Assembly (NCBI RefSeq): GCF_013409205.1
Contig: NZ_JACCAE010000001.1
Span: forward strand, 1,984,001 to 2,048,000
Direction of reading: 5' to 3'
DNA length: 64,000 nt
Source: Janibacter cremeus
GTDB lineage: Bacteria; Actinomycetota; Actinomycetes; Actinomycetales; Dermatophilaceae
Shown here: positions 3,790 to 52,913 of the stretch, one piece after another
Numbering within the stretch: position 1 is the stretch's first letter
Layout of the letters: each line of letters starts with the position of its first letter
Program-made: the position numbers and the translations under genes
The notes under the pieces: generated by a model
The model's database searches: none
Told to the model about the DNA's origin: nothing
The model's input: only the letters and a program-made list of their open reading frames with translations

Positions 3790-3813
3790 CCTGTGGGTTC
3801 ATCGACACAGGAG
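3790..3813 (+). promoter_or_regulatory. Hairpin overlapping the ykoE Shine-Dalgarno sequence
   Basis: CCTGTG (3790-3795) can pair with CACAGG (3806-3811). The second arm overlaps the ribosome site CAGGAG (3808-3813), which lies 10 bases before the ATG at 3824. This fits an expression platform in which TPP binding blocks translation. That role is inference from position and pairing. Confidence 0.4.
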
Positions 3814-3823
3814 AAGCACCCAC

Positions 3824-4468
3824 ATGACCACCACCAAGCCGGCGAACGAGGTCCGTGCCGGCACCATCAAGGCCACCCGTCCGCTGATGCGCTGGCGCAC
3901 CGTCGACCTGCTGACCGTCGCCTTCCTCGGGGTGGCCTTCGGCGTCGCCTACTGGGGCTACGGCCTGATCTACAACGGTCCGATCTCCGCGCTGGGACTC
4001 GCCTTCCAGCCGCTCTTCGGCCTCTTCGTCGGCTTCTGGTTCATCGCCGGTGTCGTCGGAGGGCTGGTCATCCGCCGCCCGGGTGCCGCCGTGGCGTGCG
4101 AACTCATCGCCGCGACCGTCTCCGCACTCTTCGGCAACCAGTGGGGCGTGACCACGATCGTCTCCGGCCTCGCGCAGGGCATCGGCGCCGAGCTGGCCTT
4201 CGCGCTCTTCGCCTACGCGTCCTTCGGCCCGATGGTCGCGGTGCTGTCCGGAGCCCTCTCCGTGCCGTTGGAGTGGCTCTACGAGATCAAGACCTACTTC
4301 ACCGACTGGACCTGGGCCTGGCAGCTGGCCTACCTGCCGTTCATGGTCATATCCGGCGTCGTCATCGCCGGTCTCGGTGGCTGGCTGCTCACCCGGGCCC
4401 TCGCCCGGGCCGGGGCGCTCAACCCCTTCCCGCCGGGCCAGGAGGTCCTGGAGCAGAGGGCGGTCTGA
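3824..4468 (+). CDS. ykoE: ECF transporter S component, YkoE type (thiamine precursor HMP uptake)
   Basis: The 214-residue protein is almost entirely membrane helices (five or six) and matches YkoE: the segment VAFGVAYWGYGLIYNGP near the start and NQWGVTTIVSGLAQGIGAE in the middle. YkoE is the substrate-capture subunit of YkoEDC, thought to import hydroxymethylpyrimidine or thiamine-related molecules. The TPP riboswitch directly upstream supports this. It is followed after 5 bases by the fused ATPase/T component, so the complete transporter is encoded by two genes. Confidence 0.88.
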   Translation: MTTTKPANEVRAGTIKATRPLMRWRTVDLLTVAFLGVAFGVAYWGYGLIYNGPISALGLAFQPLFGLFVGFWFIAGVVGGLVIRRPGAAVACELIAATVSALFGNQWGVTTIVSGLAQGIGAELAFALFAYASFGPMVAVLSGALSVPLEWLYEIKTYFTDWTWAWQLAYLPFMVISGVVIAGLGGWLLTRALARAGALNPFPPGQEVLEQRAV

Positions 4469-4473
4469 GGCCG

Positions 4474-6849
4474 GTGGCTGCGTTGATCCACTCGCGCACG
4501 CCGCCGGGCGGAGGTGACCGTGCCAGGGGTACGTCCGCGCGTCCGTCGCCACCCGGGGCGGAGGCGAAGGGGGCGCGGGGCAGCGTCGAGGTCCGTGGCC
4601 TGACCTGGCGTCCGACGGGTCGCCGGGAGCCGGTGTTGCGCGACCTCGACCTCACCGTGTCCGCGGGGCAGCGCGTGCTGCTCGTCGGACCGAGTGGCTC
4701 GGGCAAGTCCACCCTGCTGCGGGCGCTGGCCGGCCTGCTGCTCACCGTCGACTCCGGCGACCTCGCCGGAAGCGTGCGCATCGACGGCCACGAACCGGGG
4801 GAGCGGCCCGGGGCCGTCGGGCTGGTCCTGCAGGAACCCGGCTCCGGCACCGTCTCGGCCACCGTGGGTCGGGACGTCGCCTTCGGGCTGGAGAACGTCG
4901 CGCTGCCTGCCCGGGAGATGCCGCCGCGCGTGGCGGCCGCGCTCGAGCGAGTCGGTCTGGGCCACCTGCCGCTGGACACCCCGACCCACACCCTCTCCGG
5001 CGGACAGACCCAGCGCCTCGCCCTCGCCGGCGCACTCGCGCTGCGGCCCTCCCTCCTCCTGCTCGACGAGCCGACCGCGATGCTCGACGAGGCCACCGGC
5101 GAGTCCGTGCGTGATGCCGTCGTCGCTGCCGGCGAGGGGCTGACGACCGTCCTCGTCGAGCACCGGATCGCGCCCTGGGTCGATCTGGTTGACCGGATCG
5201 TCGTCCTGGACATCGACGGCCGGATCCGCCATGACGGCGCCCCCGGTCAGGTCCTCGCCGAGCACCACGACGAGCTCGTCGCCGACGGTATCTGGGTCCC
5301 GGGCGCCCCCGCGCCGACGCCGACGACCATCGATCTCGGTCCCCTCCACCAGCCGCAGCCGCACGGCACCGACCTCGTGACCGCCGACCCGCTCCACGTC
5401 GAGCGACGTCGCACTCGTCTCGATGGCAGCAGCGAGACCTCGACCGTGCTGGAGACCGACCGGCCCCTGACCGCCACGGCAGGCCGGGCCACCGCGCTCG
5501 TCGGGCCCAGCGGAAGCGGCAAGAGCACCTGGCTCGCGGCGAGCGCCGGGCTGCTGCCCCCTTCGGCCGGTCAGGTGGTCACCCATGACGGGCTGGAGGT
5601 CGCCGACGTCCCGGCACAGGACGTCGCCGGACGGCTCGGCTGGGTGCCGCAGTGGAGCTCCAGCGCGCTGCTGGCGCGGACCGTCCTGGACGAGGTCATG
5701 CTCACCGGCCGCACCCTCGGCACCCAGGACGAAGGCGATGTCCTGAGGTGCGACGCAGTGGGTCCCACGCACCGCGTGGGCGCCTCGAAGGGGAGGGCCC
5801 GTCGCCTCCTCGAGGCGCTCGGACTGGCCCACCTCGAGCGGGCCGACCCGCAGACGCTCTCCGGCGGTGAGCAGCGCCGGCTGGCGGTCGCCGCTGCGCT
5901 GGCCCACGGGCCCGGGGTCGTCCTGGCCGACGAGCCCACCGTCGGCCAGGACCGCGGCACCTGGGCCGCCGTCGTCGGGCTGCTCACCGCGCACTGTGAG
6001 CGGGGCGGGGCCGTGGTCACCGCGACGCACGACCGCGACCTCGTCGCCCTCGTCGACGAGGTGCACACCGTCGCGCCCCCGCCACCGCGGGAGGCGCCGC
6101 CACGACCACGGGCGGTGCTGTCGGCGTGCGGGCCCTTGTCCCTCTTCACCGCAGCCGCGCTACCGATCATCGCCGCGGTGCTCTCGCCCGGGTGGCGGGC
6201 CTCGCTCGTCGTGCTGGCTTTCCTGGCGCTCGGCGCGCTCGTCGGGCTCTCGAACCTGCCCGGCGCCGGTCGTGGCTGGACGGTGGCCGGGCGCTGGCGG
6301 GGGCTGGTGATCCGTCTGGTGCCCGCGCTGCTCGGGGGCCTTGGTGTCGGGTGGTCGACGTGGCTGCTCGGCGGTCAGGACGTCGGGGCGGCGCTGTCCG
6401 CGGCGATGCGGATGCTCGTCATCGTCGTGCCGTCCGCGATCACGCTCGCCTTCATCGACCCCGACGACCTCGCCGACCATCTGGGCCAACGTCTCCGGTT
6501 GCCGCCGCGGCCCGTCGTGGCCGTCGGCGCGGCGCTGCAGCGACTCCAGTCCTTCGGGGCCGCGTGGACCGAGGTCGGCTGGGCGCGCCGGTTGCGCGGT
6601 CAGGGCATCAGCTGGCGCCACCCGCGCAGCGTCGTCGCGCACCTGTGGTCCTCCACGTTGGGGATGCTGCTGCGCTCGCTCGGCTCCGCAGCGACCCTGG
6701 CGGTGGCGATGGACGCGCGGGGCTTCGCCTCGGCGGGGCGCCGGACGTGGGCCACTCGCGCTCCCTGGCGAATCGCGGACACCCTCGTCGTGCTCGTGGC
6801 CTGCGTGCCGATCGTCATCGTCGTGGCGAGCCGCTTCCTCGGAGTGTGA
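4474..6849 (+). CDS. Fused ECF transporter: two ATPase domains plus T component (YkoD-YkoC fusion)
   Basis: The 791-residue protein contains two ABC ATPase halves and a membrane domain. Walker A GPSGSGKS lies at residues 72-79 and again at 344-351. The signatures are LSGGQ at 174-178 and LSGGE at 462-466. From about residue 548 a multi-helix region ends in an EcfT-like domain (RLRGQGISW, AMDARGFAS). It powers the YkoE substrate subunit. GTG 4474 follows the ykoE stop by 5 bases; the ribosome site is weak, so coupling is likely. Residues 420-440 (GDVLRCDAVGPTHRVGASKG) are an extra loop encoded by a dispersed repeat (5731-5795), placed between a helix and the second signature motif. The insertion keeps the frame and is probably tolerated. 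Confidence 0.87.
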   Translation: MAALIHSRTPPGGGDRARGTSARPSPPGAEAKGARGSVEVRGLTWRPTGRREPVLRDLDLTVSAGQRVLLVGPSGSGKSTLLRALAGLLLTVDSGDLAGSVRIDGHEPGERPGAVGLVLQEPGSGTVSATVGRDVAFGLENVALPAREMPPRVAAALERVGLGHLPLDTPTHTLSGGQTQRLALAGALALRPSLLLLDEPTAMLDEATGESVRDAVVAAGEGLTTVLVEHRIAPWVDLVDRIVVLDIDGRIRHDGAPGQVLAEHHDELVADGIWVPGAPAPTPTTIDLGPLHQPQPHGTDLVTADPLHVERRRTRLDGSSETSTVLETDRPLTATAGRATALVGPSGSGKSTWLAASAGLLPPSAGQVVTHDGLEVADVPAQDVAGRLGWVPQWSSSALLARTVLDEVMLTGRTLGTQDEGDVLRCDAVGPTHRVGASKGRARRLLEALGLAHLERADPQTLSGGEQRRLAVAAALAHGPGVVLADEPTVGQDRGTWAAVVGLLTAHCERGGAVVTATHDRDLVALVDEVHTVAPPPPREAPPRPRAVLSACGPLSLFTAAALPIIAAVLSPGWRASLVVLAFLALGALVGLSNLPGAGRGWTVAGRWRGLVIRLVPALLGGLGVGWSTWLLGGQDVGAALSAAMRMLVIVVPSAITLAFIDPDDLADHLGQRLRLPPRPVVAVGAALQRLQSFGAAWTEVGWARRLRGQGISWRHPRSVVAHLWSSTLGMLLRSLGSAATLAVAMDARGFASAGRRTWATRAPWRIADTLVVLVACVPIVIVVASRFLGV
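5731..5795 (+). repeat. Palindromic repeat copy A, inserted in frame in the ECF ATPase
   Basis: The copy begins GAAGGCGATGTCCTGAGG, continues with GTGCGACGCA, a hairpin CCCACGC-ACC-GCGTGGG (5764-5780), and ends GCGCCTCGAAGGGGAG. The start, hairpin and end blocks recur in glpD (27752-27837, other strand), and the first 27 bases recur before hspR (52364). It is read in the same frame at both ends (EG-VL and GASKG) as the glpD copy. Confidence 0.8.
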
Positions 6850-13151: not shown

Positions 13152-13661
13152 ATGACACCTGCAGAGTTGCTCATCGACGCCTTCGACCGGGTGCGTGACG
13201 GCGCGCTCGCCGTGGTCGACGGTTTGACCGAGGACCAGTTGGCGCACCGCATCGCCCCGGACACCAACTCGATCGCGTGGCTCGTCTGGCACGCCTACCG
13301 CGTGCAGGACGACCACGTCGCCGACGCTGCCGGACTGCAGCAGGTCTGGGCAGCGCGGGGATTCATCGAGCACTTCGACCTCGACCTCGACGAGGACGAC
13401 ACCGGCTTCGGGCACACGCCCGCCCAGGTGGCGAAGGTGCGCGCCCCCGCCCACCTGCTGGCCCGCTACGTCGAGGCGACCCACCGGCAATCCGTCGCCT
13501 GGATCGGCGGCTTGACGGAGGCCGACCTCGACCGTGTCGTCGACGACGCGTGGGACCCGCCGGTCACTCTCGGGGTGCGCTTGGTCAGCGTCGTCAACGA
13601 CGACACCCAGCACATCGGGCAGGCGGCCTACGTGCGTGGTCTGCTCGACGGGTCGGAGTGA
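13152..13661 (+). CDS. DinB family protein (DUF664 type)
   Basis: The 169-residue helical protein has the DinB/YfiT bundle pattern with metal-ligand histidines at WLVWHAYRVQDDHVAD and DDTQHIGQAAYVRGLL. Such proteins often are mycothiol- or metal-dependent transferases, but the substrate is unknown. ATG 13152 is close behind TAGCGT, so a leaderless start is likely. The last codon overlaps the GTG of the SRPBCC gene (GTGA). Confidence 0.8.
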   Translation: MTPAELLIDAFDRVRDGALAVVDGLTEDQLAHRIAPDTNSIAWLVWHAYRVQDDHVADAAGLQQVWAARGFIEHFDLDLDEDDTGFGHTPAQVAKVRAPAHLLARYVEATHRQSVAWIGGLTEADLDRVVDDAWDPPVTLGVRLVSVVNDDTQHIGQAAYVRGLLDGSE

Positions 13662-27270: not shown

Positions 27271-28890
27271 TCAGACGGTGAGCATGAGCGCACGCTCCGC
27301 GGCGGCCGTGGCGGGGGCGACGTCCGCGTCGACGAAGCTCACCCGGGTCCTGCGCTCGAGGAGGTCCTCGACCGTGCGGGCGCCCTCGTGGGTGACGGCG
27401 TACGCGAGCTCGGCGCCGATCGTCGGGCAACCGGGCGCGACCGGCCCGGCCAGAGCGGGGTCGGCCTCGGCCATCGCCAGCACCTGCGGCGCGAGGGTGC
27501 CGTAGCGGCGGACCAGGCGGGTCGGCGCGTCGACCTTCGCCAGCAGGTGCGCCGGGGCGGCGCCCAGGAGGGGAAGGGAGGTGGTCCGGCACGCGGAGAA
27601 CCGGCCGGCCCCGCCGCCGATCCGGTCGACGACGGCGTCGATGGCGTCCTGCGCCATCGTGCGGTACTCGGTCAGCTTGCCGCCGGTGATCGTGATCGGA
27701 CGACCGGGCTCGTCGATGAGCAGGTGCTCGCGGGAGGCATCGGCGCTGGCGCCCCCCTTCGAGGCGCCCAGGCGGCGCATGGGGCCGCTTCCGTCGCACC
27801 GCCCACGCGGAGCGTGGGACCCAAGGACACCGCCTTCGCCCTGATCGGCCATGGTGACCAGCGGACGCAGGCCGGCGAAGCGGCCCACGACGTCGGCTCG
27901 GCTCAAGGGCTCGGCGAGGACCGAGCTCATCGCCTTCAGGAGGAACTGCTCGTCGGCGATCGGGACGGTGGGAGCAGTTCCGTCCACGCCGGGGGCCTCC
28001 TCGTCGGTCAGGCCGAGCAGGACCAGATCCCCACTGATCGGGATGGTGAAGATGAAGCGTCCGAAGTGCCCCGGCACCGGGGCGCTCAGCTGCGCCGTGG
28101 GGAAGCCGAGCCGCTCGGCCCGCAGCACCAGGTGGGAGCCACGCGAGGGGGTGACCTCGATCGACGGCTCGTGTTCGCCGCTCCAGACACCGGTGGCCAG
28201 CAGGACGTGACCGGTGGCCTCGATCGTCTCGCCGGACCGGGTGTCCCGCAACCGCACCCGGTCGGCGCCGAGCGGCTCGGCGCCGACGTAGGTGACGACG
28301 TCGGCGCCGTGGGCGGCCGCCGTCCGGGCGAGTGTGGTCACCAGACGCGCGTCGTCCTCGAGCTGACCGTCGGAGTACATGATCCCGTGCAGACCTGCGC
28401 GTGCAGCGGGCACGAGGTCGTGGACGGTGCGCGCCGAGACGCGCCTGGGCGTCGGCAGGAGCGAGCTCGGGGTACGGGCTGCCCGGCGCAGGCCGTCGGC
28501 GAGGAAGATGCCGGCATTGGATGCGATCGACTCGACGGGGTCGGTGTCCGGGACGATGTTGCGCAGTGGGCGGACCAGGTGCGGCGCGACGCGAGTCATC
28601 AGGTGGTGGCGCTCGACCGCGGAGCGGTAGGCGATGGGGAAGTCGGCCCTGGCCAGGTACCGCAGCCCGCCGTGGACCAGCTTGCTGCTCCAGCGGCTCG
28701 TGCCGGAGGCGAGGTCGTTGCGCTCTACGAGAGCGGTGCGCAGACCGCGCGATGCCGCGTCCAGCGCGGCCCCCGCGCCGGTCACGCCGCCACCGACGAT
28801 GATGACGTCGTAGCGCTCGGTGGCAAGCCGCTCGAGGGCTTCCTGCCGCTGGGTGTGGTTGAGGCCGGCGAACGGCGAGCGGGTGCTCAT
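27271..28890 (-). CDS. glpD: Glycerol-3-phosphate dehydrogenase GlpD with an in-frame repeat insertion
   Basis: The 539-residue FAD enzyme oxidises glycerol-3-phosphate to dihydroxyacetone phosphate at the membrane. It has the FAD motif G33-G-G35-x-x-G38 and the GlpD markers SSKLVHGGLRYL, TPSRGSHLVL and TITGGKLTEYRTMAQDAID. Between FAGLRPLVTMADQ and ADASREH lies about 35 extra residues (VLGSHAPRGRCDGSGPMRRL then GASKGG) encoded by a palindromic repeat (27752-27837). The reading frame is kept on both sides, so the protein is probably functional with a surface loop. Start ATG 28890 has GAGGAG 4 bases upstream. Confidence 0.92.
   Translation of the reverse strand: MSTRSPFAGLNHTQRQEALERLATERYDVIIVGGGVTGAGAALDAASRGLRTALVERNDLASGTSRWSSKLVHGGLRYLARADFPIAYRSAVERHHLMTRVAPHLVRPLRNIVPDTDPVESIASNAGIFLADGLRRAARTPSSLLPTPRRVSARTVHDLVPAARAGLHGIMYSDGQLEDDARLVTTLARTAAAHGADVVTYVGAEPLGADRVRLRDTRSGETIEATGHVLLATGVWSGEHEPSIEVTPSRGSHLVLRAERLGFPTAQLSAPVPGHFGRFIFTIPISGDLVLLGLTDEEAPGVDGTAPTVPIADEQFLLKAMSSVLAEPLSRADVVGRFAGLRPLVTMADQGEGGVLGSHAPRGRCDGSGPMRRLGASKGGASADASREHLLIDEPGRPITITGGKLTEYRTMAQDAIDAVVDRIGGGAGRFSACRTTSLPLLGAAPAHLLAKVDAPTRLVRRYGTLAPQVLAMAEADPALAGPVAPGCPTIGAELAYAVTHEGARTVEDLLERRTRVSFVDADVAPATAAAERALMLTV
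27752..27837 (-). repeat. Palindromic repeat copy B, inserted in frame in glpD
   Basis: On the minus strand it runs GAAGGCGGTGTCCTTGGG, then hairpin CCCACGC-TCC-GCGTGGG, then GGTGCGACG, a spacer, and GCGCCTCGAAGGGGGG. The blocks are those of copy A (5731-5795), with GGTGCGACG on the other side of the hairpin. Both ends are read in the same frame as in copy A. Confidence 0.8.
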
Positions 28891-28964
28891 GGGCTCCTCG
28901 GGCGAGTGACGAATCACGGTTACTCGGCGGTTATCGGATGCTACCCCTTGGGCACAATGGCCCC

Positions 28965-52345: not shown

Positions 52346-52363
52346 CCTGCGGGACTGACCGAC

Positions 52364-52407
52364 GAAGGCGTCGTCTTGAGGTGCGACGCAGGAGCCACGA
52401 AAGGGAG
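52364..52407 (+). repeat. Palindromic repeat copy C (shortened) in the dnaJ-hspR gap
   Basis: GAAGGCGTCGTCTTGAGG continues with GTGCGACGCA and then AGGAGCCACGAAAGGGAG. The first 27 bases match copy A (5731) with three differences; the hairpin part is absent. The end supplies the hspR ribosome site. Confidence 0.7.
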
Positions 52408-52415
52408 TGAGCTCG

Positions 52416-52913
52416 ATGGCCCGGATCTCCGGACTGAGCGGAGAGGACCAGACCCCGGTCTTCGTCATCTCCGTCGCCGCCGAGCTCGCCGGCATGCACG
52501 CGCAGACGCTGCGCCAGTACGACCGGATCGGCCTCGTCATTCCCTCGCGCACCCGCGGTGGCGGTCGGCGGTACAGCGCCGCCGACGTCACCCGGCTGCG
52601 CGAGGTGCAGCGCCTCTCCCAGGACGAGGGCGTCTCCCTCGGGGGGATCCAGCGCATCTTCGAGCTCGAGCACCGGGTCGCCGCCCTGCGCGCCCGGGTC
52701 GACGAGCTCGACGCGGAGCTCGACGGGGCCCGCGAGGAGCTCGGCCAGGGCCGACGATTCTTCGCCGTCGGCTCCCAGGGCGACATCGTCGCCCTGCGCC
52801 ACGGGCAGCGCCCGCGTCCCCGAAACGCCGGTCAGGCCCTCGTCGTGTGGCGTCCGCGCCCCCGACTGAGCGCGCACACTCCCCTCCTCCCTCGGAGGGC
52901 AGGGGGCGGCTGA
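52416..52913 (+). CDS. hspR: Heat shock repressor HspR (MerR family)
   Basis: The 165-residue protein has the MerR-type DNA-binding region: FVISVAAELAGMHAQTLRQYDRIGLVIPSRTRGGGRRYSAADVTRL, then a coiled coil. It binds HAIR sites with DnaK as co-repressor and closes the dnaK operon in a feedback loop; HAIR sites are at 48623, 48686 and 60862. ATG 52416 is preferred (AAAGGGAG 8 bases upstream) over GTG 52407. The C-terminal tail after VVWRPRP is extended by about 16 residues compared with my memory of the family. Confidence 0.94.
   Translation: MARISGLSGEDQTPVFVISVAAELAGMHAQTLRQYDRIGLVIPSRTRGGGRRYSAADVTRLREVQRLSQDEGVSLGGIQRIFELEHRVAALRARVDELDAELDGAREELGQGRRFFAVGSQGDIVALRHGQRPRPRNAGQALVVWRPRPRLSAHTPLLPRRAGGG

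What the first reader, a model, noticed from the sequence alone, without database searches (positions are those of the whole stretch)
5731..5795. Short palindromic repeat inserted in frame into an ECF transporter ATPase
Residues 420-440 of the ATPase are encoded by a repeat also present in glpD on the other strand and, in part, before hspR. Both protein copies share the ends EG-VL and GASKG in the same frame, though the proteins are unrelated. This is like the Rickettsia palindromic elements that create protein segments, but I know of no such family in this bacterial group.
Basis: partly seen in the sequence, partly recalled or inferred. Interest (0 to 1): 0.82.

Follow-up and report, generated by a model that had tools for sequence, protein, structure and literature searches.

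The report
Tiny mobile repeat inside bacterial proteins
A short hairpin-forming DNA repeat has inserted itself into many genes and gaps of a Janibacter genome, typically where the letters CGAAGG stood, and in genes it adds a small in-frame peptide instead of breaking the reading frame.

Summary
Window 5736-5792 is a 57-nt (19-codon) in-frame insert in an ECF-transporter ATPase, absent from orthologues in 15 of 15 other same-genus genomes. It belongs to a dispersed stem-loop family: 65 model hits at E<=0.01 in the 3.3-Mb genome, 18 of 65 called inside a CDS. The exact-block pattern occurs in 15 of 16 genus genomes but 2 of 109 genera of an order sample. Five of twelve copies tried against the nearest relative gave clean empty sites, net gains 36, 36, 57, 66 and 78 nt; each of those five empty alleles carries CGAAGG. 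In three of three genes searched in depth, other lineages carry the insert at the same codon; trees force 2, 3 and 2 changes. Sense copies in genes use only the frame that avoids the element's TGA: 10 of 10 here, 4 of 4 in relatives; that target phase is 28% of sites. It works like Rickettsia palindromic elements but fails their size criterion. No Y1 transposase was found in 16 genus genomes; the mobiliser is unknown.

The parts
4483..6849 (+). ECF-transporter ATPase gene (788 aa; two ABC ATPase stretches and a CbiQ-type membrane part) that carries the insert; the same reading frame is open on both sides
   Evidence: ORF 3793-6849; 788-aa database form P0001; Pfam; 16 of 16 genus genomes have a match
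5730..5735 (+). 5' CGAAGG, the target; present at this site in 8 of 15 genus relatives without the insert, including the nearest one
5736..5792 (+). 57-nt inserted element, 19 codons (long form); the exact edge can slide within CGAAGG(G)
   Evidence: 184 nt against 127 in 12 of 15 relatives (130, 136 and 140 in the other three; none of the 15 has the element); 57-nt gap against G014
5743..5758 (+). start block CTGAGGTGCGACGCAG
5745..5751 (+). left arm of proposed outer stem GAGGTGC, pairs with 5780-5786
   Evidence: pairing given by me to the model; five outer pairs never vary in 13 hairpin forms, so they carry no covariation
5759..5781 (+). hairpin module TGGGTCCCACGCACCGCGTGGGC, replaced by two bases (GA) in the short form
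5780..5786 (+). right arm of proposed outer stem GCGCCTC
   Evidence: as left arm
5782..5791 (+). end block GCCTCGAAGG; last six bases repeat the target CGAAGG
27271..28917 (-). glpD-like gene (548 aa; DAO and DAO_C domains) with the second in-frame copy, which lies between the two domains
   Evidence: the two genomes with a close orthologue, G010 and G014, lack the insert
27751..27841 (-). composite two-hairpin copy in glpD, 78 nt net (26 codons)
52360..52408 (+). short-form copy (36 nt net) between genes, just before a regulator gene (ORF 52407-52913); empty site in G014

Best explanation
This is one copy of a family of very short, non-autonomous mobile elements of Janibacter and one other genus of its family. 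Each has outer blocks CTGAGGTGCG...GCCTCGAAGG around a variable middle that is often a self-complementary hairpin. Shown by comparison: copies arise by precise insertion at CGAAGG, leaving CGAAGG-like strings on both sides and a net gain that is a multiple of three in all five sites measured. Shown on trees: the insert is present at the same codon in separate lineages. Shown statistically: in genes read in the sense direction only copies that keep the frame open were found, so the repeat behaves as tolerated selfish DNA that adds a 12- to 26-residue segment. Inferred: an unidentified enzyme, perhaps one that recognises the folded single strand and the CGAAGG junction, moves the element in trans. 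Inferred: the ATPase still works, because the insert is modelled as a low-confidence, mostly coil stretch between two helices. A specific use of the peptide is not supported.
For: Dispersed family with zero reversed-pattern controls in this genome. Model census: 84 hits at E<=1, 65 at E<=0.01. Absent in 15 of 15 genus orthologues and 118 of 120 listed homologues. Clean empty sites for 5 of 12 copies tried: 36, 57, 78, 36, 66 nt. Same-codon inserts: ATPase 2 of 120, ferredoxin reductase 4 of 120, mycothione reductase 2 of 120, own copy counted each time; trees of 46, 30 and 48 of those proteins force 2, 3 and 2 changes, with 0% of 200 bootstraps showing one. Sense-frame bias 10 of 10 and 4 of 4 against 59 of 210 target sites; no copy among 84 with both flanks coding in the frame that reads TGA. 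Inner hairpin covaries: score 0.411 vs 0.126 shuffled, 0 of 500. Insert region has pLDDT block means 63 and 53, with 95 before and 84 after.
Against: No mobiliser was found: no Y1 transposase in 16 genus genomes, and IS110 presence does not follow the copies. Seven of the twelve empty-site attempts were not clean (5) or found no collinear match (2). Only 38 of 65 copies show a GAAGG-like 5' motif by the script's pattern; others are point variants, and 7 are flagged as a second, intergenic GGTCC-flanked form. At the ATPase site 7 of 15 relatives without the insert do not have GACGAAGG. Four of the 10 sense copies have a 5' string that departs from CGAAGG. Two of the five covariation measures are not beyond shuffles (24 and 114 of 500 reach them). 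Gains and precise losses cannot be fully separated on the trees. No protein function was measured.
Confidence: 0.82

Rival explanations
1. A classic MITE moved by a DDE transposase, with GAAGG or CGAAGG as an ordinary target-site duplication and a strong target preference.
For: CGAAGG on both sides of inserts; in some copies the 5' side reads TGAAGG and the 3' side CGAAGG, so a 5-bp GAAGG duplication fits. Empty sites are precise.
Against: The 3' copy is CGAAGG in at least 49 of 65 copies, more often than the 5' side matches, so it may belong to the element. No long terminal inverted repeat is seen; the ends are asymmetric.
Confidence: 0.3
2. A REP/RPE-like single-strand element moved by a HUH-type (Y1, Y2 or other) enzyme, with CGAAGG acting as both the left target site and the right cleavage site, as in IS200/IS605 logic (recalled).
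For: Stem-loop with covarying hairpin; the target lies outside, and an identical string ends the element; a tandem array shares one CGAAGG between units.
Against: PF01797 absent from 16 genus genomes, while the control rings in 5 of 14 known genomes. Y2 (IS91) and other HUH families were not searched.
Confidence: 0.35
3. One old insertion per site, inherited and lost precisely many times, rather than repeated insertion.
For: Precise excision is possible in principle; P0248 has a 4-residue extra stretch that might be a decayed remnant. In the ferredoxin reductase one pair of sister proteins (P0130, P0133) shares the insert by descent.
Against: The sister group of each bearer, or of the bearer pair, lacks the insert, and the trees force separate changes with 0% of bootstraps showing one. 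Copies at one site can differ in form: long in the window's ATPase, short in P0009.
Confidence: 0.08
4. The inserts were kept because the hairpin or peptide is useful (mRNA stability, termination, or a selected loop).
For: 15 of 65 copies have a CCCCTTCG arm downstream, as on the left arm of terminator-like hairpins; a glucan phosphorylase gene carries several tandem units in frame.
Against: Such hairpins hold the target CGAAGG themselves, which suffices to explain their use. Inserts are scattered over unrelated proteins and absent from nearly all listed homologues of the three genes searched.
Confidence: 0.12

Closest known systems
Rickettsia palindromic elements (RPE)
   Same: Dispersed palindromic repeats, many found in frame inside unrelated proteins (passages of PMC2229807 and PMC10969869).
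   Different: RPEs are given as 105-146 bp with 12-bp terminal inverted repeats and target duplication marked '?' (PMC2229807 passages). These add 36-78 nt, use CGAAGG, and live in Actinobacteria.
REP elements, GTAG and CGTC super-families
   Same: Short stem-loops in many copies, mostly between genes, some inside genes encoding 20-30 residues; CGTC forms have no known transposase (passages of PMC3733652).
   Different: No conserved GTAG or CGTC tag next to the stem; the word Actinobacteria has 0 occurrences in that paper's main text; target sites are shown here.
MITEs (ERIC, RUP, YPAL and others)
   Same: Small, non-autonomous, sometimes fused in frame (passages of PMC2229807 and PMC10969869).
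   Different: Shorter, no long terminal inverted repeat seen, a short fixed target.
IS200/IS605 and IS110-type target use
   Same: Insertion beside a fixed short sequence (recalled, not from a call).
   Different: No Y1 transposase in the genus sample; IS110 not linked to the copies.

Membership tests
Rickettsia palindromic elements | Palindromic repeat inserted in frame in several unrelated protein genes | tested here: met
   18 of 65 copies in called CDS; domain assignments
Rickettsia palindromic elements | Length 105-146 bp with 12-bp terminal inverted repeats | tested here: not met
   net 36-78 nt at five sites; asymmetric ends
Rickettsia palindromic elements | Sequence kinship with an RPE family | not tested
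   no RPE sequence was fetched; an Rfam scan of 301 bases around the insert gave no match, which does not test RPEs
REP (GTAG type) | GTAG tag beside the stem and a Y1 (RAYT) transposase in the genome | tested here: not met
   no GTAG beside the stem; PF01797 in 0 of 16 genus genomes
REP (CGTC type) | Unpaired CGTC at one end of an 8-9 bp stem, CCA-like tail | tested here: not met
   read in the aligned copies: the bases next to the proposed stem are TGTCCT (CGTCCT in some copies) and GAAGG, no CCA tail
MITE | Terminal inverted repeats shared with an autonomous element | tested here: inconclusive
   no long terminal inverted repeat seen; no autonomous relative found, but only two transposase families were searched
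MITE | Target-site duplication | tested here: inconclusive
   CGAAGG on both sides at clean sites, but the element itself mostly ends in it (at least 49 of 65)

The most novel reading that the evidence does not exclude
A new class of minimal, sequence-targeted mobile DNA in Actinobacteria: 36- to 78-nt frame-neutral hairpins that an enzyme of an undescribed type inserts at CGAAGG again and again, so that the same loops of unrelated proteins gain the same short peptide in separate lineages.
Probability: 0.35. Interest if true: 0.82.

Novelty: new variant of a known kind. Interest (0 to 1): 0.66.

Why it matters
Palindromic repeats that enter proteins are best known from Rickettsia, where target duplication is marked '?' (PMC2229807 passage). 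Here a group outside Rickettsia offers insertions with clean empty alleles, a defined short target, recurrent hits at the same codon and a record of selection on frame. That makes two open questions testable: how such tiny elements move, and how often mobile DNA supplies new protein segments.

Tried and rejected
Y1/RAYT transposase as mobiliser: searched in own genome and in 16 genus genomes, none. IS110 as mobiliser: matches in 8 of 16 genomes, but G003, G006, G010 and G011 have copies and no IS110, and G001 has IS110 and no copy by the exact pattern or by the model at E<=1e-4; the ten IS110 loci fetched hold no CTGAGG.GCG block. Known RNA family: none at E<=1 in 301 bases. An old shared protein segment: rejected. 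Literature on such a repeat in Janibacter or its family: six searches listed none by title and abstract start; listings were capped and the library is open-access only. The Ogata 2002 paper was not held, so RPE facts come from passages of two reviews and one REP paper.

The CDS calls rest on a codon-usage score of my own trained on 22 open frames of the window, not on a gene finder; one search required no stop inside the element, so one search repeated the flank test without that requirement.

Full report
What was checked. The window lies at 1984001-2048000 of a 3,307,489-base genome. Its ATPase is 72% identical over the best segment to Janibacter corallicola, and 73-90% to the homologues that sources name Janibacter, so the genus is Janibacter by inference. 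The pattern CCTGAGGTGCG...GCCTCGAAGG occurs once in the window and in none of 100 shuffles. In the whole genome the two blocks within 60 bases give 31 matches (three overlap at one place, so 29 places), and the same pattern read backwards gives none. The short form with up to 3 mismatches gives 45 matches, and the hairpin plus end block gives 13; both reversed controls are zero. In the order sample two of the 396 genomes each give one reversed-control match, so the pattern is not wholly free of chance. A covariance model from 16 copies (15 of this genome, one of G014) finds 84 hits at E<=1 and 65 at E<=0.01; the copies it was built from match by construction.

Anatomy. The core is CTGAGGTGCGA, a variable middle, and GCCTCGAAGG. 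The middle is a few bases (short form), a 22- to 23-base hairpin module (long form, as in the ATPase) or one of other hairpins. I picked 13 distinct 38-base forms from the rows (five genomes). In them 98.7% of cells pair, five of twelve pairs change on both sides, and the covariation score is 0.411 against 0.126 in shuffles (0 of 500) and at most 0.077 when slid. Two further measures are not beyond shuffles: pairs changed on both sides (24 of 500 reach it) and further pair types (114 of 500). The five outer pairs never vary, so they show nothing either way. Upstream, many copies read (C)GAAGGCGGTGTC; the script's GAAGG-like pattern is met in 38 of 65, and 7 of 65 are flagged with a GGTCC-type flank instead, an intergenic form with a longer palindrome. 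At least 49 of 65 end in CGAAGG (the script takes the last match and can undercount).

Empty sites. In the ATPase, orthologues in 15 of 15 other genus genomes lack the element; 12 of them measure 127 nt where the window has 184, and the other three 130, 136 and 140. Eight of the 15 have GACGAAGG at the site, 7 do not. Against the nearest held relative (G014) I tried 12 copies. Five gave clean empty sites with gaps of 36 (acetyltransferase gene), 57 (ATPase), 78 (glpD), 36 (before the regulator gene) and 66 nt (enoyl-CoA hydratase-like gene), every one a multiple of three. In these five the empty allele has CGAAGG followed by G; the filled allele has CGAAGG on both sides, except that the intergenic one ends in CGAAAG. 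Five more were collinear but not clean, and two had no collinear match in the 320 kb fetched. For the acetyltransferase copy the largest gap in the alignment was an unrelated upstream one; the element's own gap is 36.

Recurrence at the same codon. Among 120 listed ATPase homologues (of 3,522 found), 118 lack the element; P0009, an unnamed protein at 79% identity on a short contig, has a short-form insert (EG-AVLRGDREASKG) at the same codon, read by eye because the script's pattern missed it. Some other homologues have longer loops there that do not look like the element. For the ferredoxin reductase copy, 4 of 120 listed carry a 12-residue insert at the same codon. For the mycothione reductase copy, 2 of 120 listed do (the pattern flagged four others that I judged not to be the element). 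These were the three genes searched in depth, so three of three. Trees of 46, 30 and 48 of these proteins, built without the insert columns, force 2, 3 and 2 changes, with one change in 0% of 200 bootstraps. Losses instead of gains are possible but need more events.

Selection on reading frame. Sense CGAAGG in called genes of the window and of 320 kb of G014 falls in phase 1 (xCG AAG Gxx) 141 times, phase 2 (xxC GAA GGx) 59 and phase 0 10, of 210. A sense insertion in phase 1 reads TGA in CTGAGG; the other two sense frames and all three antisense frames of the long and short forms are open. Of 18 copies (E<=0.01) called inside a CDS, 10 are in sense, all in the frame GAC GAA GGC (phase 2); 8 are antisense, in several frames. 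In relatives, 25 loci were taken, 23 copies could be examined and 9 had both flanks coding; the 4 sense ones are all in that frame, and one of the 5 antisense ones has a stop inside. Taken as independent, 10 of 10 has chance 3e-6 and 14 of 14 2e-8. Cautions: four of the 10 (2670882, 1832148, 767606, 578573) have a 5' string that departs from CGAAGG, one relative copy lies in the same gene as one of ours, and one search excluded stops inside the element. Counting only the 6 own and 4 relative copies with exact CGAAGG gives 10 of 10 again. One search repeated the test on flanks only: 19 of 84 copies have coding flanks on one strand, 18 keep the frame, one changes frame, and none shows a gene cut by the TGA.

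Host genes. Of 20 frames scanned, 19 matched a Pfam family. The insert lies within the matched stretch in nitronate monooxygenase, SRAP, carbon-nitrogen hydrolase, two pyridine-nucleotide oxidoreductases, CopD and enoyl-CoA hydratase proteins, and beside or between domains in others, glpD included. In the ATPase model (mean pLDDT 88.5) the insert spans about residues 419-437: coil with block means 63 (411-420) and 53 (421-430), its last few residues drawn as the start of helix 432-445; the blocks before and after have 95 and 84. That it is a tolerated surface loop is inferred.

Terminators. 15 of 65 copies have a CCCCTTCG arm downstream, so they sit on the left arm of GGGG...CCCCTTCG hairpins; one of the 15 is in a called CDS and two belong to one tandem array. 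The target string occurs naturally in such hairpins, which suffices to explain it.

Range. The exact pattern is in 15 of 16 genus genomes (own included) and 0 of 42 others of a kinship sample, and in 5 of 396 genomes, 2 of 109 genera, of an order sample. The covariance model at E<=1e-4 rings in 17 of 186 family genomes, in 2 of 53 genera, and in 14 of the 16 genus genomes. The nearest relative G014 has 1 such hit where this genome has 24 in the same call, which suggests a recent burst; this is an inference.

Mechanism. Shown: precise insertion of a folded short repeat at CGAAGG; frame-keeping survival in genes. Not shown: the enzyme. Y1 transposases were not found in 16 genus genomes (the control rings in 5 of 14 known genomes), and IS110 does not follow the copies. 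The like strings at the element end and at the target recall single-strand transposition (recalled, not from a call), but a 5- or 6-base target duplication fits equally.

Place among known things. Passages of PMC2229807, PMC10969869 and PMC3733652 (not whole papers) describe RPEs, MITEs and tagged REPs, including intragenic ones encoding 20-30 residues. This family works like them but fails the tested size, end and tag criteria, and no listing in six searches showed it. It is filed as a new variant of a known kind. Nothing in the checking round called for a change of odds.

Noticed in passing
own genome C1:767587-767726 (L008): A glucan phosphorylase gene carries several head-to-tail units of the element in frame (GVLRCEER repeats and ASKGASKG), a possible in-protein tandem expansion.
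   Followed up: partly
window 13343-13486, minus strand: Weak IS110 (PF02371) remnant with an internal TAG.
   Followed up: no
L129, L253, own C1:975565-975698: Tandem arrays of elements that share a single CGAAGG-like string between units; the array at 975565 has a 38-base period, not a multiple of three, outside called genes.
   Followed up: partly
P0248 (mycothione reductase homologue): Four extra residues (EGSSAKG) at the recurrent site, perhaps a decayed remnant of an insert.
   Followed up: no
L245, L253, L255, L268, L269 (genus g64): A second genus of the family carries the same element; whether by descent or transfer is unknown.
   Followed up: no
G014 L241 and own 2125442: The one strong copy found in G014 lies antisense in a CopD/CtaG-like gene much like the one hit here, at what looks like the same protein position.
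   Followed up: no
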